Below, piece after piece: positions 2,329 to 11,912 of a stretch of DNA of 13,477 nucleotides. Source of the DNA: Candidatus Poribacteria bacterium (GTDB lineage Bacteria > Poribacteria > DTPJ01 > WJIO01). The stretch covers positions 1 to 13,477 of the forward strand of contig WJIO01000047.1 in NCBI GenBank assembly GCA_014730235.1, given 5' to 3'. A program made the position numbers and the translations under genes. The notes beneath the pieces are model-generated. The model saw nothing but the letters and a program-made list of their open reading frames with translations. It did no database searches and was not told the origin of the DNA. Positions within the stretch are counted from its first letter, which is position 1; each line of letters begins with the position of its first letter.

Positions 2329-2351
2329 GGCTTTTCCAAGTTTAGTTTAGA
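2329..2351 (+). repeat. Possible degenerate solo terminal repeat of the GGCTCTTCC element family
   Basis: Immediately after the HIT stop codon, GGCTTTTCCAAGTTTAGTTT and three more bases align without gaps to the terminal repeat of the elements described below, with about 17 of 23 identical positions. It lies only 7 bases before the left end of the 2359-2478 copy. It may be a relic of an older copy into which the newer one inserted. No matching right end is visible, so chance or partial erosion is possible. Confidence 0.35.
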
Positions 2352-2358
2352 AATAATT

Positions 2359-2478
2359 GGATCTTCCGGGTTAAGTGTGGTTATAATTGAAAATTCCCTC
2401 AGCTTGTCATTCCTGCGGAAGCAGGAATGACAGCATAAAGAAGTTTTTTATCTTTACCACACTGAACCCGGAAGATCC
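2359..2478. mobile_element. MITE-like non-autonomous element, copy A (120 bp)
   Basis: A 120-bp palindromic element between the convergent HIT and recJ genes. Its left end (2359-2381, beginning GGATCTTCCGGG) and right end (2456-2478) are inverted copies matching at 22 of 23 positions. The flanks are AAATAATT (2351-2358) and AAATAAAT (2479-2486), a 7-of-8 match that looks like an 8-bp target duplication with one change. Inside is a GTCATTCCTGC hairpin. The sequence between ends and hairpin (for example TATAATTGAAAATTC on the left) recurs in the copies at 10302 and 11634. It encodes nothing. Termini beginning GG with 8-bp AT-rich duplications are what I know of the ISL3 family; that assignment is inference. 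Confidence 0.85.
2405..2432. repeat. Inner hairpin of copy A, possible bidirectional terminator
   Basis: TGTCATTCCTGC and its exact reverse complement form a 12-bp stem with a GGAA tetraloop. On the + strand it is followed 8 bases later by AAGTTTTTTATC, so it could end HIT-operon transcripts. It lies between convergent genes, where a two-way terminator would be useful. This short palindrome type is widespread in intergenic regions of many bacteria. The termination role is inferred. Confidence 0.5.
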
Positions 2479-2590
2479 AAATAAATTAAAGAAATTAAGG
2501 CTTAATCTCTGCATAAATCATGACGACTCCCCCTCTTATATCTTAGTCATTATTTTATGAAAAATTTTTATAATATTTTCGCAAATTTGC

Positions 2591-5146
2591 TTATGTTATT
2601 ACCTCTAGAAGGATTTTACGAATATCATCAGCCGTTTTTCGGGATATAAAATGTGAGAATTTCTCCCATTCCCGTTTTAGTTTATCACCCGTTAAATAAA
2701 TTTGTGATTGGCTTAAATCACGCTTCTGATCTCCTGTATCTAAAAGTGAAACAGCAGTTTTACCATTCTCCTGGTGTCGTTTTACCAGTTCTATCTCTTC
2801 AAATACAGATATGGATTTAGAAACGATTAGATCTTTTGCCCCTTCCAGATTTATATTCATGGCTATATCTTCTATGTAAATCTTGTTGCTGTTCCTGCTT
2901 TCAGCTAATTCTTTTGCCTTTCTGTATACATTGGCAAGAATTTTACGATCCGGGTATTCCTGATTTAATAACATGGTAAGGTAATCTATATCTTTGTTGT
3001 TAAATATAAGGTGGACATATATTGGTTCGTCAGTTTCTATGGCTGGAACGCAGAACTTAATAAATAACTCCCTTGTTGGAACAGGATGACAGAATACCAG
3101 ATGTTTAAGCTCTGGAAGGGTTTCTTCAAAGGGCACACTTGAAGCTATTACATCAATTTCCCCCTGGGAAAAATCTCTTTTTATATTAAATTTCTCCTCT
3201 TCTGGTGTTATATTATAGCATGATACCAGCTTGGTTTTTGCCGAATATTTAGCTATGATTTTACCCAGTTGATCAACAGCCGCATCGTCCCGCACATACA
3301 TTAATATTTTTTCATCCATACTCAGCAGTTTTTTTATGTGTTTTTCTTTGTCAGGTATATTGCGTCGATCTGCTATCTTAAGCTGGGAAAGATCCATAAT
3401 TTCTGCCGATGCAGCCATTAGTTTATATTCATCCTCTATATTATTTATAATTATCTCATTAATAACCAGTTGGACAAAACGGTTTCCATTCCATTCATTA
3501 ATATTTGGTCGGCAGGCTACATCAATGGTTACACTGGAATCATAAAGCTCTTTTTCTAACTCACCTTTTCTGAAAGCTATGGATCTAAAGGCGAATTTGC
3601 CATCTGACAGAGTTAATTGCAGATGTGCGTCGTTGTTGCCAACTGTTCTGGGGTAGCCCTGTAATGAAAGGCCATGAATTGATACCTGTGGACTTGGATT
3701 ACCCAATCCATAAGGTTCAAGTAAGTTCAGATTTTCCACTGCTGCTTCTGAAAGTTGATCCAGGGATGTCTCCATATCAATAATCACCTTAGGGCTTAAG
3801 TCTTCTGGTGTAAGCACCTCATCCATAACATTGGAAAATTCCTGGCGGAATTTTCCAATGTTATGTTTTGCTATGGATAATCCCGCAGCAGCTTTGTGTC
3901 CCCCAAAGGTTTCCAGGAGATGAGAGCATCTTTGCAGAGCATGGAAAATATCAAATTCCGGTATACTTCGGGCTGATCCTCGTCCTTCATCTCCTTCGAG
4001 GGATATAACAATGGCCGGCCTATAGTATCTTTCCTGAAGCCTGGAAGCTACTATACCCACAACCCCGGGATGCCATCCATCGTCAGCTAATATTATACCC
4101 TTTTCCCTGGACAAATCATATTTCTTAAGCTGATCAATAGCCGCATTCAGAATATTGCGTTCAATATTCTGTCTTTCTTTGTTTGCTTCATCCAGCTTTT
4201 TTGCAATGTCCAGGGCTTCTTCATAAGAATCGGTTGTAAGTAGTTTTACCGCGCAGTGGGCGGTATCAATACGGCCTGCGGCGTTTATTCTTGGCCCTAA
4301 TCTGAAACCTACAGTCCAGCTATTTACCGATCCTTCATTAACTCCTGCTACTTCACAAAGGGCCCTTATACCTGTGCGTTCCATTTTATTCAGAATATCC
4401 AGGCCGTATTTGGCGATGATCCTGTTTTCACCGATGAGAGGAACTACATCGGCAATAGTTCCCAGAGCTACAAGATCAAACTGCTTTTTCAGGAAATCCT
4501 GATTATCACCTGTGTTATCTCCAAGTAATCCTTGGACCAGCTTAAAGGCAACTCCAACACCAGCTAACTCACAAAACGGATAATGACAGGATTGGAGTTT
4601 TGGATTTATAACCACAAGGGCCGGAGGAATTTCTTCACCAGGTTCATGGTGATCTGTAATAATTAAGTCAATTCCTGCTTCATTGGCTATTCGTACTTCG
4701 TCAATTGCGCTGATGCCGCAGTCCACTGTTATAAGCAGATTACAACCTTTGCTACTCAAATCCTTTATTCCTTCAGAACTGAGACCGTAACCCTCATCCA
4801 GACGGTGAGGTATATAATAATCCACGTTAGCACCAAGATGTCTAAGGCATGTAAGCAAGAGTGATACGGATGTGGTTCCATCAACATCATAATCACCATA
4901 AAGCCATATCTTTTCGCCTTTATCTATAGCCCTTTTAATACGGTCAACGGCATCGGATATACCGTTCATCATTGAAGGAGGATGAAGATACGAAAGCTTC
5001 GGATAAAGGAATCGCCGGCCTTCGTCAGAATCTTTTATACCCCTGTTTACCATAAGTTGAGCGATTAAATATGGTATATTGAGTTCAGAAGCCAATTTCT
5101 TGCTGAGTTCTTCATCAGGTTTTTTAGACTGCCATATTTTTCTCAT
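2591..5146 (-). CDS. recJ: Single-stranded-DNA-specific 5'-3' exonuclease RecJ, long form
   Basis: RecJ degrades single-stranded DNA 5' to 3' in recombinational and mismatch repair. All DHH/DHHA1 motifs are present: GDYDVDG (84-90), VDCGI (from 141), the DHH triad in ITDHHEPGE (165-167), LGTIADVVPL (D233), GPRINAAGRID (285-293), WHPGVVGIVASR (358-369) and the DHHA1 substrate motif GGHKAAAG (415-422). An OB-like region follows. At 851 residues it is much longer than the E. coli enzyme (about 577) and longer than the roughly 780-residue Firmicutes type; the last 280 or so residues are a divergent C-terminal extension. The ATG at 5146 is supported by the typical N-terminus (RKIWQSK...LMVNRGI), although no clear Shine-Dalgarno precedes it. 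It lies 35 bases after an 89-codon gene and is probably co-transcribed with it and the HAD gene. Confidence 0.96.
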   Translation of the reverse strand: MRKIWQSKKPDEELSKKLASELNIPYLIAQLMVNRGIKDSDEGRRFLYPKLSYLHPPSMMNGISDAVDRIKRAIDKGEKIWLYGDYDVDGTTSVSLLLTCLRHLGANVDYYIPHRLDEGYGLSSEGIKDLSSKGCNLLITVDCGISAIDEVRIANEAGIDLIITDHHEPGEEIPPALVVINPKLQSCHYPFCELAGVGVAFKLVQGLLGDNTGDNQDFLKKQFDLVALGTIADVVPLIGENRIIAKYGLDILNKMERTGIRALCEVAGVNEGSVNSWTVGFRLGPRINAAGRIDTAHCAVKLLTTDSYEEALDIAKKLDEANKERQNIERNILNAAIDQLKKYDLSREKGIILADDGWHPGVVGIVASRLQERYYRPAIVISLEGDEGRGSARSIPEFDIFHALQRCSHLLETFGGHKAAAGLSIAKHNIGKFRQEFSNVMDEVLTPEDLSPKVIIDMETSLDQLSEAAVENLNLLEPYGLGNPSPQVSIHGLSLQGYPRTVGNNDAHLQLTLSDGKFAFRSIAFRKGELEKELYDSSVTIDVACRPNINEWNGNRFVQLVINEIIINNIEDEYKLMAASAEIMDLSQLKIADRRNIPDKEKHIKKLLSMDEKILMYVRDDAAVDQLGKIIAKYSAKTKLVSCYNITPEEEKFNIKRDFSQGEIDVIASSVPFEETLPELKHLVFCHPVPTRELFIKFCVPAIETDEPIYVHLIFNNKDIDYLTMLLNQEYPDRKILANVYRKAKELAESRNSNKIYIEDIAMNINLEGAKDLIVSKSISVFEEIELVKRHQENGKTAVSLLDTGDQKRDLSQSQIYLTGDKLKREWEKFSHFISRKTADDIRKILLEVIT

Positions 5147-5181
5147 TTTATTTCGGATGGAATTAATTGGAGATTTATTTA

Positions 5182-5451
5182 TTACTCTTGAGCTTCCGCA
5201 TTAGCTTGTTCCGCTTGAGGTGGTTGCTCTTCCTGGGGTTGTTGTGCTGGTGCAGCTTGTTCTGTTGGAGGTGTGGCTCTCCAGGCCTGTTCAAGCTTAT
5301 CCAGATGTTCCAGCAAAGCATAAACCTGTGAAGCGAGATGTGCGGCTGTTAGATTTTCATCCATAACGCCTTCAACGCTTTCCTTTACCGCTTCTTTTGC
5401 CTTAACGATATCTGATATAAGGTTATAATCAATCTGTGACATTAACATCAT
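5182..5451 (-). CDS. Small hypothetical protein with Pro/Gln/Ala/Glu-rich tail (89 aa)
   Basis: I do not recognise this protein. The first 60 residues look helical (repeated KAKEAVKESVEG and HLASQVYALLEHLDKLEQAW patterns), with no Cys and no membrane segment. From about residue 60 the chain turns into a low-complexity, probably disordered tail rich in P, Q, A and E. A strong AGAGGAG ribosome site precedes it. The ATG at 5451 is only 4 bases from AGGAG, the next ATG at 5448 is 7 bases away and a third is at 5442, so the true start may be one or three codons later. It lies 19 bases after the HAD stop and 35 before recJ, so it is probably in their operon. The good ribosome site and tight spacing make it a credible gene. 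Confidence 0.72.
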   Translation of the reverse strand: MMLMSQIDYNLISDIVKAKEAVKESVEGVMDENLTAAHLASQVYALLEHLDKLEQAWRATPPTEQAAPAQQPQEEQPPQAEQANAEAQE

Positions 5452-5470
5452 TTTTCTCCTCTATTTTGTT

Positions 5471-6295
5471 TCATAATATTTGTTCAATAATCTGAGCTAC
5501 TCCACTATCTTCATTGGACGGAGCTATTATTAAATCATCAAATCTTCCTGTCATATCTTTCTTGATTTCATCTGAGGCGTTATCCATAAGCACCTTGCCG
5601 CCTGCAACTTCCAGCATTGGTAGATCGCTGTAATTATCACCAAAGGCCATGGTCTGTTTAATTGGTATATTCAGTATTCTGCAAAGCTCAATAAGGGCTT
5701 TACCTTTGTCAACGCCTTTTGCATTAAGCTCTACATATTCAGGATTTGTCCGGGTTATATTAGCTTCATTCCCCCACTTCTGGACAAACTGCTGGTAGAC
5801 TTGTTCCCGCATTTCGGGCTTTACAATGGTAATCAGCTTGGTAGGTTGAGTATTTTCAATTATTTGATAGAAATCACGGGCAAAGGTAAAGGTTGCTCCG
5901 GTCTGATTATGGTATATATCAGTGTATTTATCCTGTTTCATAGCAAGAATTTTATCGGGATAATGAACAGTCAAACACCATCCCATATTTCTGGTGAATT
6001 CCATAACCCTGTCAACCATACCCGAAGGTATTGGTATATGATAAAGCAGTTCCCGTTTTCCGTCAATCTTTTCACCGCATACAATAGCACCAACGCAGGC
6101 TATAATTGGATCGTAGATTTCAAGTATATCTGAAAAGTTATCTATGGTTTCCACCTCCCGACCTGAAGCCAGTATAACATATATACCTTTTTTCTGGCAT
6201 TCTTTCAGGATTTCGTAGTTGCGGTGTGGTACTTTATGCTCATTGTCAAGAAGGGTTTTATCCAGATCAATGGCTAAGAGTTTATACTTGGACAT
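5471..6295 (-). CDS. Cof-type HAD-IIB family phosphatase
   Basis: A 274-residue haloacid-dehalogenase phosphatase of the Cof/YidA type, cytoplasmic, normally acting on sugar phosphates, nucleotide-like phosphates or other phosphometabolites. Motif I is D10-L-D12-K-T14 (AIDLDKTLL; the usual Gly is Lys here), motif II is S44 in LASGRE, motif III is K197 in AKGVDKGKAL and motif IV is GDNYSDLPML with D220, N221 and D224. Residues of roughly 85-185 form the type-IIB cap. The length and the KGVDKGKAL signature are normal for the family. The start has a GAGGATGGA ribosome site. It heads the probable HAD - 89-aa - recJ operon, 92 bases after the sulfatase stop; substrate is not deducible. Confidence 0.93.
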   Translation of the reverse strand: MSKYKLLAIDLDKTLLDNEHKVPHRNYEILKECQKKGIYVILASGREVETIDNFSDILEIYDPIIACVGAIVCGEKIDGKRELLYHIPIPSGMVDRVMEFTRNMGWCLTVHYPDKILAMKQDKYTDIYHNQTGATFTFARDFYQIIENTQPTKLITIVKPEMREQVYQQFVQKWGNEANITRTNPEYVELNAKGVDKGKALIELCRILNIPIKQTMAFGDNYSDLPMLEVAGGKVLMDNASDEIKKDMTGRFDDLIIAPSNEDSGVAQIIEQIL

Positions 6296-6387
6296 ATTTC
6301 CATCCTCAGATTTATTCTTGTATTTAAATTACGAAACTAAATGGATTAATGCTTTTATTCCGGATAAAATAACAAAACATTAAAATA

Positions 6388-7779
6388 TCAGTATGCACCA
6401 GTTCTCAACGGAAATTGTTTTTCCGCATCAAACCAACGGGATAGCATTTCATGCCTCATCATATTCAGAATATCCTCATAATTTTCATCGTTTGCCAGGT
6501 CATTCAATTCATATGGATCATTTTTAAGATCGAATAAAATCTCTCTACCCTTATTGTTACGACAGTATTTATATTCCAGAGTGCGGACAGTTCGCCATGA
6601 TATTCTGAATGGGTCTTTGAATTCCATGAGTATAGAGTTTCTTGGTTTATATTCCTGCTTCTGTAATGCCGGTTTAATGGAGTGTCCCTGAACAATTCGG
6701 GGTGTTTGTATACCGCAGTAGTCAAGTATAGTGGGAACAATATCAACCTGTTCCACAAGATGGTCTATAACCATCCCCGGATCAATAACTCCCGGATAAC
6801 TTATTAAAAATGGCACATGTATGCAACTATCGTATCCCGGCGCGCCCTTACCTGTCAAAGCATGATCCCCCAGGTGTTCACCGTGATCTGACAGAAATAT
6901 CATCATTGTATTATCCCTAAGCCCCTCTTCTTCCAGGGTTTTCATTATCCGTCCAATCTGGTCGTCTATATGGGTTATCAGGGCATAATAATAAGCTACC
7001 ATTTTCTTTAACTGCTCAGGTGGAATATCGGCGGCACGTCCTCTATCATTCTCACTCATGCGGGGAAGCGGCATATTCTCTATATCATACATATGCACAA
7101 ATCGGGCGGGTGGGTTTATAGGGGCGTGAGGTGCATATATACCCGCAAAGGCGAAGAATCTATCATCTTTATGCTGTTTTATGTATTCGCATGTTTCAGA
7201 AGCCACAAAAGCGGTATGAGTCAAATCCTCATCTGATTCCCATATATACGGCGTTAAAGCTCCTCGAGGTGGTTTATTGTTATCCGGTTGGTTAGCGGCT
7301 GGAGGAAGAGCTACCCGGCAGTTATATACCTGATCCGGCGCAATGCTTTCCACCCATTTAATATAAGCATCGTCATAACATCCCGGTTCATCCGACAAAA
7401 TCAAAGTATCAAAACCATAATCGGGATGGGGATCTTTGTGATCCCGGTTGGAATGATTCCAGAAGTGCAACTTGCCGATATTGGCCGTATGATAACCATA
7501 AGGCTTGAGAATTTTGTTTACTGTAAGGGTATCCTCAGGCAATTGTATGCCGTTGCATGTGCATCCCAGAGCTGATGGATATTGTCCAGTCATGAGACTC
7601 ATGCGACTGGGCATACATACCGGATTATTGGTGAAGCAGTTGGTAAAAACCGCGCCTTCTGATGCCATTTTATCCAGATTTGGAGTATGTATAAGATCAT
7701 TACCTGTGCATCTTAATGTATCCCATCTCTGTTGATCTGTATGGATTATAAGGATATTTGGTCGTTTTAAAGAACGCAT
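6388..7779 (-). CDS. Formylglycine-dependent sulfatase (arylsulfatase family)
   Basis: A 463-residue sulfatase that hydrolyses sulfate esters using a Cys-derived formylglycine. The maturation motif is C55-M-P-S-R59 in NPVCMPSRMSLMTGQ. Metal and active-site residues follow: D15 (IIHTDQQRWD), K103 and H105 (IGKLHF), H218 (YAPHAP), D298-H299 in FLSDHGEHLGDH and K311 (TGKG). There is no signal peptide: the N-terminus MRSLKRPNILII enters the core directly, so the enzyme is probably cytoplasmic. The frame can extend to a GTG at 7809, but I chose the ATG at 7779 because GGAGGAT lies 5-6 bases upstream and the protein begins as family members do; the GTG would overlap a hairpin arm. It follows the SPI and Gfo/Idh/MocA genes on the same strand, which suggests breakdown of a sulfated sugar or sugar derivative. 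Confidence 0.94.
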   Translation of the reverse strand: MRSLKRPNILIIHTDQQRWDTLRCTGNDLIHTPNLDKMASEGAVFTNCFTNNPVCMPSRMSLMTGQYPSALGCTCNGIQLPEDTLTVNKILKPYGYHTANIGKLHFWNHSNRDHKDPHPDYGFDTLILSDEPGCYDDAYIKWVESIAPDQVYNCRVALPPAANQPDNNKPPRGALTPYIWESDEDLTHTAFVASETCEYIKQHKDDRFFAFAGIYAPHAPINPPARFVHMYDIENMPLPRMSENDRGRAADIPPEQLKKMVAYYYALITHIDDQIGRIMKTLEEEGLRDNTMMIFLSDHGEHLGDHALTGKGAPGYDSCIHVPFLISYPGVIDPGMVIDHLVEQVDIVPTILDYCGIQTPRIVQGHSIKPALQKQEYKPRNSILMEFKDPFRISWRTVRTLEYKYCRNNKGREILFDLKNDPYELNDLANDENYEDILNMMRHEMLSRWFDAEKQFPLRTGAY

Positions 7780-7782
7780 CAG

Positions 7783-7789
7783 ATCCTCC
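7783..7789 (-). promoter_or_regulatory. Ribosome binding site deciding the sulfatase start
   Basis: GGAGGAT on the minus strand sits just upstream of the ATG at 7779. It lies inside the longer reading frame that would begin at the GTG at 7809, so it favours the shorter protein. Confidence 0.75.
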
Positions 7790-7808
7790 AGAAAAACTCT
7801 GTAAAACA

Positions 7809-7846
7809 CATAGAGGGCAGGCTTTTATAAAAGCCTGCCCTCTATG
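7809..7846 (-). terminator. Perfect 18-bp-arm hairpin between SPI and sulfatase genes
   Basis: CATAGAGGGCAGGCTTTT (7809-7826) and its exact reverse complement (7829-7846) are separated by two bases. It lies 19 bases after the stop of the upstream TIM-barrel gene. The minus-strand side is followed by only a weak T run (GTGTTTTAC), while the opposite strand has AAATTTTTAT. It is probably a transcription terminator or an mRNA-stabilising stem partly insulating the sulfatase gene. It is not related to the GTCATTCC repeats. Confidence 0.65.
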
Positions 7847-7865
7847 AAATTTTTATATGAACTTA

Positions 7866-8882
7866 TTATTCATCGGCAAAGGCTGCATCAAAAGCTGTGG
7901 CTGACGGCTCAAAGTCCAAGACTTTCACAAATTCACAGGCTTCTGCCGCACCATGTTCTCTATCCATTCCCGAGTCTTCCCATTCTACGCTCAGGGGGCC
8001 TTGATAGTTAATATCGTTAAGGGCCCGCATGATCTCTTCAAAATTTACACTTCCGCGACCCAGAGAACGGAAATCCCAGAATCTGCGGTGATCGCCAAAC
8101 CCCAGATGTCCACCAAATACACCGGACAGCCTAGGAACTTCTGACCAGTATACGTCCTTCATATGGACATGGTATATGCGATCGCTGAAATGGCGGATGA
8201 ATTCAACATAGTCAACGCCCTGATAGCCTAAATGGCTTGGGTCGTAGTTAAAACCAAAGGCTTCCCTTCGTCCAATAGCTTCCAGAGCCCTTTCGGCTGT
8301 TACAATATCAAAAGCTATTTCTGTGGGATGGACTTCCAGACCAAATTTGATGTTCACCTCATCAAATACATCCAGAATAGGGTTCCATCTTTCTGCAAAT
8401 TCTTCGTATCCGGCATCAATCATACCGGGATCTGTCGGTGGGAAAGAATAAAGCAGGTGCCAGATACCTGAGCCGGTAAAGCCATTTACCACAATGTCAT
8501 GTCCAGCGGCTTCTGAAAGTTTTCTTGCTGCCCGGGCTACATTTTTAATCTGTTCAGCAGCCCTTTTGTTGACGCCGGCAGGATCACCATCACCCCATAT
8601 TTCAGGAGCGAGAATTTCCTTGTGTCTTTCATCAATACGGTCACATACAGCCTGACCTGTAAGATGGTCACTAATAGACCATACTTTCATGCCTTTTTTA
8701 TCCAGCATGTCCAACAAGTTTTTGCAATAATCGGAATCTTCCAGGGCTTTTTCTGCTTCAAAATGACCACCCCAACAGGCCAATTCTACACCATCATAAC
8801 CAAAACTTTTTGCCTTATCTACTACTTCTTCAAGAGATAAATCTGCCCACTGTCCGGTGAACAGAGTCACTGGTCTTGCCAT
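7866..8882 (-). CDS. Sugar phosphate isomerase/epimerase family (AP endonuclease 2-like TIM barrel)
   Basis: A 338-residue xylose-isomerase-like TIM-barrel protein of the kind annotated as sugar phosphate isomerase/epimerase. Members isomerise or epimerise sugars, inositols or keto-sugars using a divalent metal. Metal-ligand candidates are E183 (GLEVHP), D214 and H217 (NYDPSHLG), H238/H240 (YHVHMKD) and E300 (SVEWED), all in order and spacing of the family. The N-terminus [33 protein letters not shown] is typical. The frame extends to an ATG at 8915, but the ATG at 8882 has AGGAG 8 bases upstream and the conserved start, so I use it. It follows the Gfo/Idh/MocA gene by 53 bases on the same strand; this pairing is common in inositol or unusual-sugar catabolism. 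No signal peptide. Confidence 0.93.
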
Positions 8883-8890
8883 TTTTTTCA

Positions 8891-8895
8891 CTCCT
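8891..8895 (-). promoter_or_regulatory. Ribosome binding site deciding the SPI start
   Basis: AGGAG on the minus strand lies 8 bases before the ATG at 8882, which supports that start over the in-frame ATG at 8915. Confidence 0.7.
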
Positions 8896-8903
8896 ATTAA
8901 TAA

Positions 8904-8930
8904 ATCACAGATCACGAATTACTGATCACT
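8904..8930. repeat. Short ATCAC-rich spacer repeat
   Basis: Within the 53-base gap between the Gfo/Idh/MocA and SPI genes the word ATCAC occurs three times (8904, 8911 and 8925). The whole stretch resembles GATCAC/CAGTGATCAG filler sequence that I recall from intergenic regions of several bacteria. It could be a small dispersed repeat; nothing else in the window matches it closely. Confidence 0.3.
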
Positions 8931-8935
8931 GTTTA

Positions 8936-10099
8936 CTACATATCACTTATATCAACCCATGTCTTTTCCTGAGCAGATTTTACCACAGCATCCAGAACTT
9001 CCTGGCATTTAACACCATCCACAAAACTTGGGCTGGGCATTTCATCATTGGCAATAGCCTGCATCAGGTTGTATACCTGATGTATAAAGGTATGTTCATA
9101 ACCGATTATATGAGCTGCTGGCCACCAGGCTTCTATATATGGATGAGATGGGTCAGTTGCCTGTATAAGCCTGAAACCCTGAAGGCCTTCGGGATCGTCG
9201 CAGTTGTAGTATTCCAGTTCGTTCATGCGTTCCAGGTTAAATACAACACTTCCCTTGCTTCCGTTTATCTCAAATCTGTTGTGGTTCTTTCTTCCGGCGG
9301 CAAATCTTGTGGCTTCAAAGGAACCCAGAGCGCCATTTTCAAATCTAGTAAGGAATAAAGTCGCATCATCTACGGTTACTTTACCTTTACCGCCAGTGGC
9401 TTTAGCAACAAGACCTCCGGTTGTTCCAACTTCTGTAAGTGGACGTTCTTTGATAAAGGTCTCTTCCATTCCTACTACAGATTTAAATTCACCCACCAGA
9501 AAACGGGCTAAATCTATTATATGGGCGTTTAAATCACCGTGAGAACCGGAACCAGCAACATTTTTATCCAGACGCCAGACTATAGGGAAATCAGGATCAA
9601 CTATCCAGTCCTGAAGATAAACACCCCTGAAGTGATATATTTTACCAAGCACGCCATCATCAATCATCTTTTTTGCCAGGGCTACGGCTGGCGCTGTACG
9701 ATAATTGAAGTTAATCATATGCTTAACGCCGGCTTCCTCAGCAGCCTGGAGCATTTCTCTTGCATCAGCCAGATTCAGCGCCAGAGGCTTTTCACAGAAT
9801 ACATGCTTGCCATTTTCAATAGCACCCATTGCGATCTCTTTATGGGCGTTGCTGGGAGCTGTTACATCAATCAGATCAATGTCATCCCTTTTAGCTAAAT
9901 CTTTCCAATTTGTTTCATAACTTTCCCAGCCAAATTTTTCTGCAGCGGCTTTGACACCTTCTTCGTTTCTACCACAGATGGCCTTCATAACCGGTTCTGC
10001 ATCCATGTCAAAAAACATGGCTACATCGCTGTAAGCGTTGCTGTGGGCTTTGCCCATGAATTTGTAGCCTACAAGCCCTACATTGACTTTCTTAGCCAT
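8936..10099 (-). CDS. Gfo/Idh/MocA family NAD(P)-dependent oxidoreductase
   Basis: A 387-residue dehydrogenase related to glucose-fructose oxidoreductase and myo-inositol dehydrogenase, expected to oxidise or reduce a sugar or cyclitol with NAD(P). The Rossmann start is [19 protein letters not shown] (about residues 5-23), with a Y-K-F insertion in the glycine loop instead of the usual GxGxxG. CEKPLALN (102-109) carries the conserved EKP lysine, and [18 protein letters not shown] (183-200) holds the D189...H193 catalytic-type pair. No signal peptide or Tat motif, so cytoplasmic. An excellent AAAAAAGGAGG site precedes the ATG. It is the first gene of the run leading to the TIM barrel and the sulfatase, and has a promoter candidate about 120 bases upstream. 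Confidence 0.95.
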
Positions 10100-10157
10100 T
10101 TATTTTTTCCTCCTTTTTTCATACTAAAAAACAGTTTCTGGAGTTTAATTATCAAGC

Positions 10158-10173
10158 ATCAGATTGCTCTGAT
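10158..10173. promoter_or_regulatory. Possible operator palindrome upstream of the Gfo/Idh/MocA gene
   Basis: ATCAGA-TTGC-TCTGAT is a perfect 6-bp inverted repeat with a 4-base centre. It lies in the leader region between the promoter candidate and the start codon, where a sugar-responsive repressor could bind. It could equally be a weak mRNA hairpin or chance. Confidence 0.3.
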
Positions 10174-10218
10174 TGCCAAAAGCTATCAAATGATATGCTA
10201 TTATATACCTTTTTGACT

Positions 10219-10247
10219 AGGATACTAAAAAGGATTAATAATGTCAA
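10219..10247 (-). promoter_or_regulatory. Sigma-70-type promoter candidate for the Gfo-SPI-sulfatase group
   Basis: On the minus strand a perfect -35 TTGACA (10242-10247) is followed by 17 bases and TATCCT (10219-10224; 4 of 6 against TATAAT). This predicts a leader of roughly 110 bases. A perfect TATAAT (10200-10205) lies further downstream but has no good -35. Confidence 0.45.
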
Positions 10248-10301
10248 TAATTTTTTCTGAACCTCAGATATGAGTTTGAAAAAGGGGAAAATGATATTTT
10301 T

Positions 10302-10442
10302 ATTTCTTCTGGGTTTAGTGTGGTTATAATTGAAAATTCTCTCAGTTTGTCATTCCTGCTTCAAGCTTTTTTAAAAAGCTTGAAGCAGGAATGACAGCGT
10401 AAAGAAGTTTCTTATCTTTACCCCAGTCAAGCCGGAAGAGCC
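10302..10442. mobile_element. MITE-like non-autonomous element, copy B (141 bp)
   Basis: A second copy of the element seen at 2359-2478. It is flanked by a perfect 8-bp duplication ATATTTTT (10294-10301 and 10443-10450), which fixes both ends. The left end (10302-10324) has lost the terminal GGC (reads ATT) but continues TCTTCTGGGTTTAGTGTGG; the right end (10420-10442) reads GGCTCTTCCGG when reversed. The two match at about 15 of 23 positions, so this copy is older or more diverged than copy A. Outside the hairpin the interior is nearly that of copy A (TATAATTGAAAATTC on the left; TAAAGAAGTTTCTTATCTTTAC on the right). No coding capacity. Confidence 0.85.
10348..10396. repeat. Perfect 24-bp-arm inner hairpin of copy B
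   Basis: The arms 10348-10371 and 10373-10396 are exact reverse complements around a single central T. The outer part is the shared TGTCATTCCTGC; the inner part (TTCAAGCTTTTT) is unique to this copy, so the stem is twice as long as that of copy A. Paired changes on both arms imply that the hairpin itself, not just its sequence, is kept or was formed by copying one arm. Confidence 0.8.
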
Positions 10443-10493
10443 ATATTTTTTAAACTTGCTTAAATACGTTTGCAATATTAATATTCTCTATAT

Positions 10494-10676
10494 CTATTTT
10501 ATTGCAGCCCAGGTTATAGCAAGCTTATCAACTGGTTTTACAGCTAATACTCCCTCTGCACCAATATTCATGTAGGTATTTATCTGTTCTTCAGTAAAGC
10601 ACTCGTTGGCCATGATTAATTCATCAATGATACCCTCCATGAATCTGGCTCCACCACAGCTTTTTCCGATAATAAT
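10494..10676 (-). pseudogene. C-terminal remnant of a LamG/concanavalin-like domain protein
   Basis: The translated segment GGARFMEGIIDELIMANECF followed by TEEQINTYMNIGAEGVLAVK looks like the end of a LamG-type lectin domain (FxGxIDEvxIxNxALxxxxI), and the last residues AVKPVDKLAITWAAIK match the tail type that I recall from LamG proteins of Poribacteria. Only about 60 residues survive; the rest of the domain and the start are missing. Upstream in the same frame the sequence is endonuclease III DNA read out of frame, so homology starts near 10667-10676. It overlaps the 3' end of the endonuclease III gene (in another frame, same strand). A free-standing 77-codon frame from an ATG at 10727 exists but has no sensible domain start, so I call it a broken gene. 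Confidence 0.6.
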
Positions 10677-11301
10677 CACAATATCGACTGATCTTACACT
10701 TTTCACATCTGGGTTTCCTGCTGACACAAACGGACTGGCCGTGAAACATAATTAAATGGGAAAAGGCCGACCAGTTTTTCTTTGCCACCACTTCCATTAG
10801 ATCCTCTTCCATCTTATCAGGAGTTTTCTTATCCGTCAACCCCAAACGTTCTGATACCCTTACCAGATGGGTGTCCATTATTATTCCTGGCTTGTCATAG
10901 CAGTTTACCAGAAGCATATTGGCTGTCTTGCGCCCAACTCCGGGAAGAGATATCAGGTCATCCATATTATCAGGCACTTTACTGTCAAATTTTTCTATCA
11001 AAGTTTTGCAGCAAAGCTTAATGCGATTGGCCTTTCGGCTATATGCACCGGTGCTGAAAATTTCTTCTATAAGTGTATCCTTATCCGAATCTATATAGTC
11101 CTGAGGTGTTTTGTATTTATCAAACAGGGTTTCTGTAACCTCGTTTACCCTTTCATCGGTGCATTGAGCAGCCAGTATACTGGCTATAAGTAATTCAAAA
11201 GGGGTGGAGAAATTTAACCTGGGGCCAGCGTCGGGATATTCCTGTTCAAGTATGGGAATCATCTCCCTTACGTGCTTCTGCCGGGTTCGCTTTGTATACA
11301 T
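10624..11301 (-). CDS. nth: Endonuclease III (DNA glycosylase/AP lyase), altered C-terminus
   Basis: Removes oxidised pyrimidines and cleaves at abasic sites in base-excision repair. The helix-hairpin-helix is LPGVGRKTANMLL with the catalytic Lys, followed by the catalytic Asp in IMDTHLVRVSERLGL. The [4Fe-4S] loop is intact as C-x6-C-x2-C-x5-C (CVSRKPRCEKCKISRYC). The frame opens at a TTG at 11361, but that codon overlaps a promoter -35. The ATG at 11301, preceded by GGAGGT 10 bases away, gives the normal MYTKRTRQKHVREM start and about 225 residues. After the last cluster Cys, family members end within about ten residues; here DYYRKK continues into about 11 residues (LWWSQIHGGYH) read from the LamG remnant in another frame. 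The native stop seems to have been lost in a rearrangement. The core should still work. Confidence 0.93.
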   Translation of the reverse strand: MYTKRTRQKHVREMIPILEQEYPDAGPRLNFSTPFELLIASILAAQCTDERVNEVTETLFDKYKTPQDYIDSDKDTLIEEIFSTGAYSRKANRIKLCCKTLIEKFDSKVPDNMDDLISLPGVGRKTANMLLVNCYDKPGIIMDTHLVRVSERLGLTDKKTPDKMEEDLMEVVAKKNWSAFSHLIMFHGQSVCVSRKPRCEKCKISRYCDYYRKKLWWSQIHGGYH

Positions 11302-11311
11302 AACAGGATTT

Positions 11312-11317
11312 ACCTCC
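11312..11317 (-). promoter_or_regulatory. Ribosome binding site supporting the nth start at 11301
   Basis: GGAGGT on the minus strand lies 10 bases before the ATG at 11301. The spacing is slightly long but no better start with a site is present. Confidence 0.55.
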
Positions 11318-11332
11318 AGAGAATGTTGTATT

Positions 11333-11361
11333 GTTATAGTGGAAGTGAAAAGAAAAGACAA
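11333..11361 (-). promoter_or_regulatory. Promoter candidate for nth
   Basis: TTGTCT (11356-11361), a 17-base spacer and TATAAC (11333-11338) lie on the minus strand. This predicts a short leader of about 25 bases before the ATG at 11301. The -35 lies 18 bases from the end of element copy C, so that insertion stopped just short of the promoter. Confidence 0.45.
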
Positions 11362-11379
11362 GACAAACTATGAATTTTT

Positions 11380-11551
11380 GGTTCTTCCGGGTTTAGTATG
11401 GTAAGGATTTCGCAGAAATTACATAAGAATATATTTTTTGAGCATTTACATCCGTTTCTTTATGCTGAAATCTTATAAATATTGGTTTTAGAAATCTTTT
11501 AGAATTATCAGCAATTTTTTTCATTTTCACCAGACTTAACCCTGAAGAGCC
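11380..11551. mobile_element. MITE-like non-autonomous element, copy C (172 bp, different interior)
   Basis: The left end (11380-11402, GGTTCTTCCGGGTTTAGTAT...) and right end (11529-11551, which reversed starts GGCTCTTCAGGG) pair at 19 of 23 positions. A perfect 8-bp duplication GAATTTTT flanks it (11372-11379 and 11552-11559). The ends belong to the same family as copies A, B and D, but the AT-rich interior of about 126 bases shows no resemblance to theirs and lacks the GTCATTCC hairpin. It encodes nothing convincing. It therefore shows that the ends alone define the mobile unit. It sits just upstream of the nth promoter. Confidence 0.85.
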
Positions 11552-11633
11552 GAATTTTTAGGGAATATATCATAATTTGTGTTTTTTCACAATAAGCAAG
11601 TTTAACGTCCAAATTTATGTCCGTGAAAACTTT

Positions 11634-11754
11634 GGCTCTTCCGGTTTGAGTATGGTAATAATTTGAAAATTCCCTCAGCTTGTCATTCCTGCGAAAGCAG
11701 GAATCCAGAAGCATCAGCACAAATAATGGATTCTTGCTTTCGCAGGAATGACAA
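11634..11754. mobile_element. Partial MITE-like element, copy D (left end plus inner hairpin)
   Basis: The left terminal repeat (11634-11656, GGCTCTTCCGGTTTGAGTAT...) and the adjoining TTTGAAAATTCCCTCAGCTT match copies A and B. After the inner hairpin the sequence departs from the other copies and no right terminal repeat or duplication of the flank AAAACTTT is visible. It is thus a one-ended, probably truncated copy, 74 bases beyond the duplicated flank of copy C. The remaining 158 bases up to the next gene show nothing I can identify beyond AT-rich sequence and that gene's ribosome site. Confidence 0.7.
11680..11754. repeat. 28-bp-arm inner inverted repeat of copy D
   Basis: Arms 11680-11707 and 11727-11754 are reverse complements at 27 of 28 positions, around a 19-base loop. 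Each arm contains TGTCATTCCTGCGAAAGCAG or its reverse complement, a palindrome class common in intergenic DNA of many bacteria. A smaller self-complementary hairpin (ATTCCTGC-GAAA-GCAGGAAT) is nested in the left arm. The pattern looks like the copy A hairpin duplicated in inverted orientation. Confidence 0.8.
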
Positions 11755-11912
11755 ATTTTGTAATTTACCATCATTATAAAGGTATTTTCTAAACACATTT
11801 TTCATTTTTTAACGATTACAATTTAAATTTACTGGTTTGTTTATGCCTGCAAATCATTGTTTTATTGGCTGCTCTGATGTAATATATTTTATACCAGAAT
11901 GGAGGTAACAAA

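What the first reader, a model, noticed from the sequence alone, without database searches (positions are those of the whole stretch)
2351..11754. A family of small non-autonomous elements with 23-bp inverted ends and 8-bp target duplications
Copies at 2359-2478, 10302-10442 and 11380-11551, plus a one-ended copy at 11634, share termini of the GGCTCTTCCGGGTTTAGTG type. Flanks are duplicated: AAATAATT/AAATAAAT (7 of 8), ATATTTTT/ATATTTTT and GAATTTTT/GAATTTTT. Exact 8-bp duplications around two independent copies are strong evidence of transposition. GG-starting ends and 8-bp AT-rich duplications are features I associate with the ISL3 family; no transposase is present here, so the assignment is inference.
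Basis: partly seen in the sequence, partly recalled or inferred. Interest (0 to 1): 0.75.

Follow-up and report, generated by a model that had tools for sequence, protein, structure and literature searches.

The report
ISL3-type miniature transposons, mosaic copies
The window carries short gene-less jumping DNA elements that occur several hundred times in this bacterium; they were most likely moved by a borrowed ISL3-family transposase, and the odd "one-ended" copy is a patchwork of three different element families.

Summary
Copies lie at 2359-2478, 10302-10442 and 11380-11551, with the stated flank duplications. Genome-wide there are 942 ends within 3 mismatches of the 23-bp terminus (control 0). 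In 1.57 Mb sampled I found 179 inverted pairs. Of these, 62 have exact 8-bp duplications (0.87 expected) and 93 have at most one mismatch. The duplications are 91% A+T, and only 10 of 86 sites fall in ORFs (73% for AT-matched random sites).

The ISL3 assignment is supported: relatives in the same phylum carry near-identical ends, and in one of them this end type abuts a PF01610 ORF. The own genome has three contig-edge ISL3 fragments, but no autonomous parent was found. A Microcystis MITE with GGCTCTTCG ends and 8-bp duplications is already published, so this is a new member of a known kind.

Beyond the finding:
- Many copies sit inside a second MITE family (9-bp duplications) and moved with it; a related element without the insert gives an empty site.
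- The copy at 11634 is a B/A/C mosaic; 16 A/C hybrids were found (0.6 expected).
- The two ends of a copy share private mutations more than chance, consistent with hairpin-templated correction.

The parts
2359..2478 (+). Family A MITE copy, 120 bp (the main size class), 23-bp inverted ends, central TTGTCATTCCTGC-GGAA-GCAGGAATGACA hairpin
   Evidence: folds as one long hairpin, -38.8 kcal/mol, z -11
2351..2358 (.). left target duplication AAATAATT
   Evidence: 7 of 8 match with 2479-2486
2479..2486 (.). right target duplication AAATAAAT
10302..10442 (+). Family A MITE copy, 141 bp class (hairpin extended by TTCAAGCTTTTTTAAAAAGCTTGAA); left GG degraded to AT
10294..10301 (.). target duplication ATATTTTT
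10443..10450 (.). target duplication ATATTTTT
11380..11551 (+). 172-bp element sharing only the terminal ~23 bp with the main class (different interior, no core hairpin)
11372..11379 (.). target duplication GAATTTTT
11552..11559 (.). target duplication GAATTTTT
11608..11633 (+). degraded left end of a family B MITE (CCAAGCATAAAATTTATGTCCGTGAAAACTTT type), the host of the A insertion at 11634
11634..11755 (+). left half of a family A MITE plus the extended shared core hairpin; no A right end
11756..11819 (+). right half of a family C MITE, ending in CATTTTTTAACGATTAC; makes 11634-11819 an A/C hybrid
2329..2351 (+). possible relic of another A end (6 mismatches of 23); at this score chance matches occur
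   Evidence: background rate

Best explanation
These are ISL3-type MITEs: about 120-bp (range mostly 119-205) gene-less elements whose 23-bp GG-starting inverted ends are recognised by an ISL3-family DDE transposase encoded elsewhere. That enzyme inserts them into AT-rich, mostly intergenic 8-bp targets, which become duplicated. Shown: the ends, the 8-bp duplications, the target bias, several hundred copies, and an empty-site counterpart. Inferred: that an ISL3 transposase did it, since no autonomous parent with exactly these ends was found in the fragmented assembly. Some copies also spread as passengers inside a second MITE family (B, 9-bp duplications). The unpaired copy at 11634 is a mosaic made by recombination at the core hairpin that families A and C share (junctions shown, mechanism inferred).
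For: Copy number: 942 ends against control 0. Transposition: 62 of 179 exact 8-bp duplications against 0.87 by shuffling, and 57 of 137 outside family B. Target preference: duplications 91% A+T with A-rich starts and T-rich ends, genome 59% A+T; 10 of 86 sites in ORFs of 150 aa or more, against 73% of AT-matched random sites. ISL3 link: PF01610 is present in the same genome as three contig-edge fragments, two of them with IS ends GGTTCATCCGGTTAATGCGTAG and GGATTCATCCGGGAAATGCCG. A complete 1306-bp ISL3 element with a 404-aa transposase and perfect 24-bp ends of the first type was found in a Bacteroidetes MAG. G048 right end GGTTCATCAGACTTAAGTGGGG abuts a PF01610 C-terminus, and three other G048 contig edges carry GGCTCTTCAGAGTTAAGTGTGG with homologous subterminal sequence. 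Published precedent: Microcystis MITE, GGCTCTTCG ends, 8-nt repeats, ISL3 transposases with the same ends (PMC11448079). Empty site: B elements without the insert (L122, L161) against filled ones (L195), whose insert is flanked by AAAACTTT/AAAACTTC.
Against: No intact ISL3 element bounded by the exact MITE ends was found in the sampled part of the genome, in the other held genomes of the phylum, or (exact pattern) in genome contigs and viral contigs; plasmids and phages gave no blastn match. The two ISL3 IS ends in the same genome match the MITE terminus only in the outer ~13 bp. In G048 the left and right IS ends are on different contigs. There is no congeneric genome for orthologous empty sites.
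Confidence: 0.88

Rival explanations
1. The elements are MITEs but were moved by a transposase of another family that also makes 8-bp duplications (for example IS66, IS256 or IS1595 groups); the resemblance of the ends to ISL3 is convergence.
For: No autonomous parent with the exact ends was found in the genome.
Against: The ends match phylum relatives' IS ends over most of 23 bp, and in G048 that end type abuts a PF01610 ORF. A published ISL3 MITE has the same GGCTCTTC start. GG starts and AT-rich 8-bp duplications fit ISL3 (own knowledge).
Confidence: 0.09
2. The repeats are a host-maintained structural element (REP, terminator or small RNA-like hairpin) that spread by other means, and the 8-bp repeats are coincidental.
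For: Strong hairpins, intergenic location, and pairing between arms preserved through shared mutations. The central core also occurs in another family.
Against: Exact 8-bp duplications about 70 times above chance, none at 9-12 bp. No Rfam match. An element class with the same ends but an unrelated interior (11380-11551) also has an exact duplication.
Confidence: 0.02
3. For the 11634 copy: a simple truncation of a MITE by deletion, not a hybrid.
For: One-ended copies are common: 112 unpaired A ends at 5 mismatches or fewer in 1.57 Mb, some of which are certainly deletions or degraded.
Against: The DNA to its right up to 11819 is the right half of family C, joined at the shared core. Sixteen A/C hybrids were found against 0.6 expected by chance placement, and 15 of 16 lack an 8-bp duplication.
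Confidence: 0.1
4. For the end-to-end shared mutations: inheritance from subfamilies rather than correction between the two arms.
For: Some shared variants (e.g. GGGTTTGGTG) occur in several copies.
Against: Rare variants are shared between the two ends of one copy 8 times against 0.84 by shuffling, and 0 times between one end and the opposite end of the nearest related copy. The excess remains after removing family B composites (8 against 0.72, 0 of 2000 shuffles).
Confidence: 0.3

Closest known systems
187-nt MITE of Microcystis aeruginosa PCC 7806 attributed to ISL3-family transposases (PMC11448079)
   Same: GGCTCTTC-starting inverted ends, 8-nt flanking repeats, stem-loop structure, no transposase, mostly intergenic, ISL3 elements with matching ends in the genome
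   Different: About 31-33 identical copies there; here several hundred diverged copies (median 9 mismatches of 120 to the nearest sampled copy), a different size and interior, nesting in a second MITE family, and A/C hybrids
ISL3-family insertion sequences (complete 1306-bp element L149, 404-aa transposase with PF01610, PF14690, PF13542)
   Same: GG-starting inverted ends with GGTTC.TCCGG outer motif
   Different: The window elements carry no transposase; inner parts of the ends differ from L149; L149 shows no exact 8-bp duplication
ISL3-type elements of the phylum relatives G004, G029, G048
   Same: Ends GGCTCTTCAGAGTTAAGTGTGG / GGTTCTTCAGGGTTAAGTGTGG are 2-3 mismatches from the window's family; G029 also has short derivatives (270-571 bp) with such ends
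   Different: The interior of the G004 element is not assembled; consensus differs at positions 9, 11 and 23
Template-switch correction of quasipalindromes (e.g. PMC8604942, PMC7202029)
   Same: Homogenises inverted-repeat arms and inverts the spacer, which matches the shared end mutations and the random orientation of the loop seen here
   Different: Described from yeast genes and E. coli reporters; here only inferred from sequence patterns

Membership tests
MITE (non-autonomous DNA transposon derivative) | Short, no transposase gene | tested here: met
   Mostly 119-205 bp, no ORF of transposase type
MITE (non-autonomous DNA transposon derivative) | Terminal inverted repeats | tested here: met
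   23-bp inverted ends in 179 pairs
MITE (non-autonomous DNA transposon derivative) | Target site duplication of fixed length | tested here: met
   62 of 179 exact 8 bp against 0.87 expected; none at 9-12 bp
MITE (non-autonomous DNA transposon derivative) | High copy number | tested here: met
   942 ends in 5.53 Mb
MITE (non-autonomous DNA transposon derivative) | Empty-site counterpart | tested here: met
   Family B elements with and without the A insert; not testable at orthologous loci, no congeneric genome
ISL3-derived element | Inverted ends that begin with GG | tested here: met
   G at position 1 in 115 and at position 2 in 109 of 128 ends
ISL3-derived element | 8-bp, AT-rich target duplication | tested here: met
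   91% A+T
ISL3-derived element | Same ends bound an ISL3 (PF01610) transposase gene | tested here: inconclusive
   Related ends abut PF01610 in G048 and in the own genome, but no intact element with the exact ends was found
ISL3-derived element | Mobilised in trans by an ISL3 transposase | not testable with these tools
   Needs an experiment

The most novel reading that the evidence does not exclude
The palindromic core (GTCATTCCTGC-loop-GCAGGAATGAC) is a shared exchange module: unrelated MITE families A and C carry it, template switching keeps its arms and the outer ends matched and flips its loop, and recombination at it keeps producing hybrid elements and, with them, chromosome rearrangements.
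Probability: 0.35. Interest if true: 0.55.

Novelty: new member of a known kind. Interest (0 to 1): 0.42.

Why it matters
It documents an ISL3-type MITE family with several hundred copies in one genome and shows MITEs nesting and travelling inside another MITE family, with duplications of different lengths (8, 9 and 5-6 bp) that let each step be read separately. The excess of shared mutations between the two ends of one copy and the random loop orientation offer a natural data set for testing template-switch correction in bacterial palindromes. The A/C hybrids mark places where repeats may have rearranged the chromosome.

Tried and rejected
(1) Autonomous parent in the own genome: PF01610 gave only three contig-edge fragments, PF14690 none; long-range inverted ends with matching flanks gave only near-matches, mostly between ends of separate short elements. 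(2) Exact-pattern scans of genome contigs and viral contigs and blastn of phages and plasmids: nothing. (3) search for related loci with the own ISL3 fragment gave seven loci (Bacteroidetes, Desulfonatronum) with GGTTCATCCGG-type ends where an end could be read, but not the MITE parent. (4) The sixteen '7-bp duplications' first looked like a variant duplication length; most proved to be copies inside family B, all derived from one insertion. (6) Rfam: no match in the window. (7) Papers with ISL3 family plus 8 bp plus AT-rich: none held.
Full report
OBSERVATION. The three complete copies and their flanking duplications are at the stated coordinates. The window lies on contig 411 of a 451-contig assembly of 5.53 Mb. 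A search for GGNTCTTCCGGGTTNAGTNTGGT with up to 3 mismatches gives 463 forward and 479 reverse ends in that genome, and 0 for the reversed control. I could not load the whole genome, so I fetched stretches totalling 1.57 Mb. These hold 179 inverted pairs at 45-260 bp, dominated by lengths 119-122 (87 pairs), 141-142 (19) and 160-165 (26). Sixty-two pairs have exact 8-bp flank duplications and 31 have one mismatch; shuffled flanks give 0.87 and 4.5. No exact match of 9-12 bp occurs. From the end counts I estimate about 500-600 element equivalents genome-wide (inference).

TARGETS. Duplications are 91% A+T (genome 59%), typically starting with A and ending with T. After joining the flanks in a script, 10 of 86 sites lie in ORFs of 150 aa or more, against 85% of random and 73% of AT-matched random sites. 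In the window all copies lie between genes; the neighbouring genes are of the carbon-nitrogen hydrolase, HIT, RecJ, HAD hydrolase, sulfatase, xylose-isomerase-like, GFO/IDH/MocA, HhH-GPD and aldo-keto reductase families.

ANATOMY. The main class reads GGTTCTTCCGGGTTTAGTGTGGTTATAATTGAAAATTCTCTCAGCTTGTCATTCCTGCGAAAGCAGGAATGACAGCATAAAGAAGTTTCTTATCTTTACCACACTGAACCCGGAAGAACC (consensus). A single strand of the 2359 copy folds into one long hairpin, -38.8 kcal/mol, z -11. Other classes keep the ends and change the interior, including the 172-bp copy at 11380-11551.

WHICH TRANSPOSASE. The own genome holds only three PF01610 fragments, all at contig edges, as expected when multi-copy IS collapse in a short-read assembly (inference). 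Two of them reach an IS end: GGTTCATCCGGTTAATGCGTAG and GGATTCATCCGGGAAATGCCG. The first is the end of a complete 1306-bp ISL3 element in a Bacteroidetes MAG. They share the outer ~13 bp pattern with the MITE. Closer are phylum relatives. G004 has seven contig-edge ends of the types GGTTCTTCAGGGTTAAGTGTGGG and GGCTCTTCAGAGTTAAGTGTGGT. G048 has three contig edges with GGCTCTTCAGAGTTAAGTGTGGGAA(T/C)GAAA.TTGCTA, and the homologous opposite end GGTTCATCAGACTTAAGTGGGGGTATGGATCTTGCTA lies about 50 bp from a PF01610 C-terminus. This ties the end type to ISL3. A published Microcystis MITE with GGCTCTTCG ends and 8-nt repeats was assigned to ISL3 on the same grounds (PMC11448079).

NESTING (family B). 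A subset of A copies has constant flanks, GTGAAAACTTT on one side (42 ends). These belong to a second family with CCAAGCATAAAATTTATGTCC inverted ends. Of 27 B pairs (163-315 bp), 15 have exact 9-bp duplications and none has exact 8- or 10-bp ones; most contain an A element at the same internal site. The simplest reading is that A jumped into B once and the composite then spread with B's own duplication length. Two B elements without A (L122:4167-4331 with an exact 9-bp duplication, and L161:18857-19021) read ...AAGACTTCTGAACAGG.TAAAAAC, whereas the filled copy L195 reads ...AAAACTTT[A]AAAACTTCTGATACAGACTAAAAAC. This is an empty-site counterpart with an 8-bp duplication matching in 7 of 8. The naked elements are diverged relatives, not the very donor.

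HYBRIDS (family C). The DNA right of 11755 matches a third family with GTAATCGTTAAAAAATG inverted ends and 5-6 bp duplications (16 of 31 exact at 5 bp against 0.64, and 7 of 31 at 6 bp against 0.38, by shuffling). Of 31 C pairs, 21 carry the core hairpin found in 163 of 179 A pairs. Sixteen elements have one A end and one C end, mostly joined through the core, against 0.6 expected by chance; 15 of 16 lack an 8-bp duplication. The window's 11634-11819 element is one of these, with a relic of a B end at 11608-11633. Recombination or template switching at the shared core is the likely origin (inference).

END-TO-END CORRECTION. Rare variants (10 or fewer among 358 ends) are shared by both ends of one copy 8 times (shuffle mean 0.84, maximum 4 in 1000 shuffles) and never with the opposite end of the most similar copy. 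The excess survives removal of B composites. The window's 2359 copy has GGATCTTCC at both ends. The loop (GAAA or TTTC relative to the arms) occurs 50:31, and nearest neighbours agree no more than by chance (41 of 81, 52% expected). Arm homogenisation together with spacer inversion is the described signature of template switching between inverted-repeat arms (PMC8604942). I did not prove single events.

AGE. Among 52 exact 120-bp copies the nearest sampled neighbour differs at a median of 9 positions (minimum 4), so the main expansion is not recent (inference).

VERDICT. A real, abundant ISL3-type MITE family, a new member of a known kind, with well-resolved nesting and hybrid formation. Organism name not established: the tools give genomes without names.

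Noticed in passing
L184:5724-5919, L211:6215-6425, L183:5089-5321 and 24 other pairs: Second MITE family (B): CCAAGCATAAAATTTATGTCC inverted ends, 9-bp target duplications, usually carrying a family A element inside; transposase family unknown.
   Followed up: partly
window 11756-11819; e.g. L068:2888-3011, L125:11155-11277: Third MITE family (C): GTAATCGTTAAAAAATG inverted ends, 5-6 bp duplications, shares the GTCATTCCTGC core hairpin with family A.
   Followed up: partly
L122:4167-4331, L161:18857-19021: Family B elements without A carry a different palindromic core, TCATTGCGA(A/G)GAACGGAGTGAC(G/A)AAGCAAT...ATTGCTTCGCTTT.CT.GCAATGA, so cores may be exchangeable cargo.
   Followed up: no
G029: L127-L129, L226-L228: A relative in another family of the phylum has its own 270-571 bp derivatives with GGCTCTTCAGAGTTAAGTGTGG ends.
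   Followed up: partly
L105:10844-11005, L175:5533-5776: A further palindromic insert (CTTGTAGGGACACGG...CCGTGTCCCTACAAG) replaces or extends the core in some elements.
   Followed up: no
L065:1-200: ISL3 transposase fragment ending in a different IS end (GGATTCATCCGGGAAATGCCG), a second ISL3 type in the same genome.
   Followed up: no
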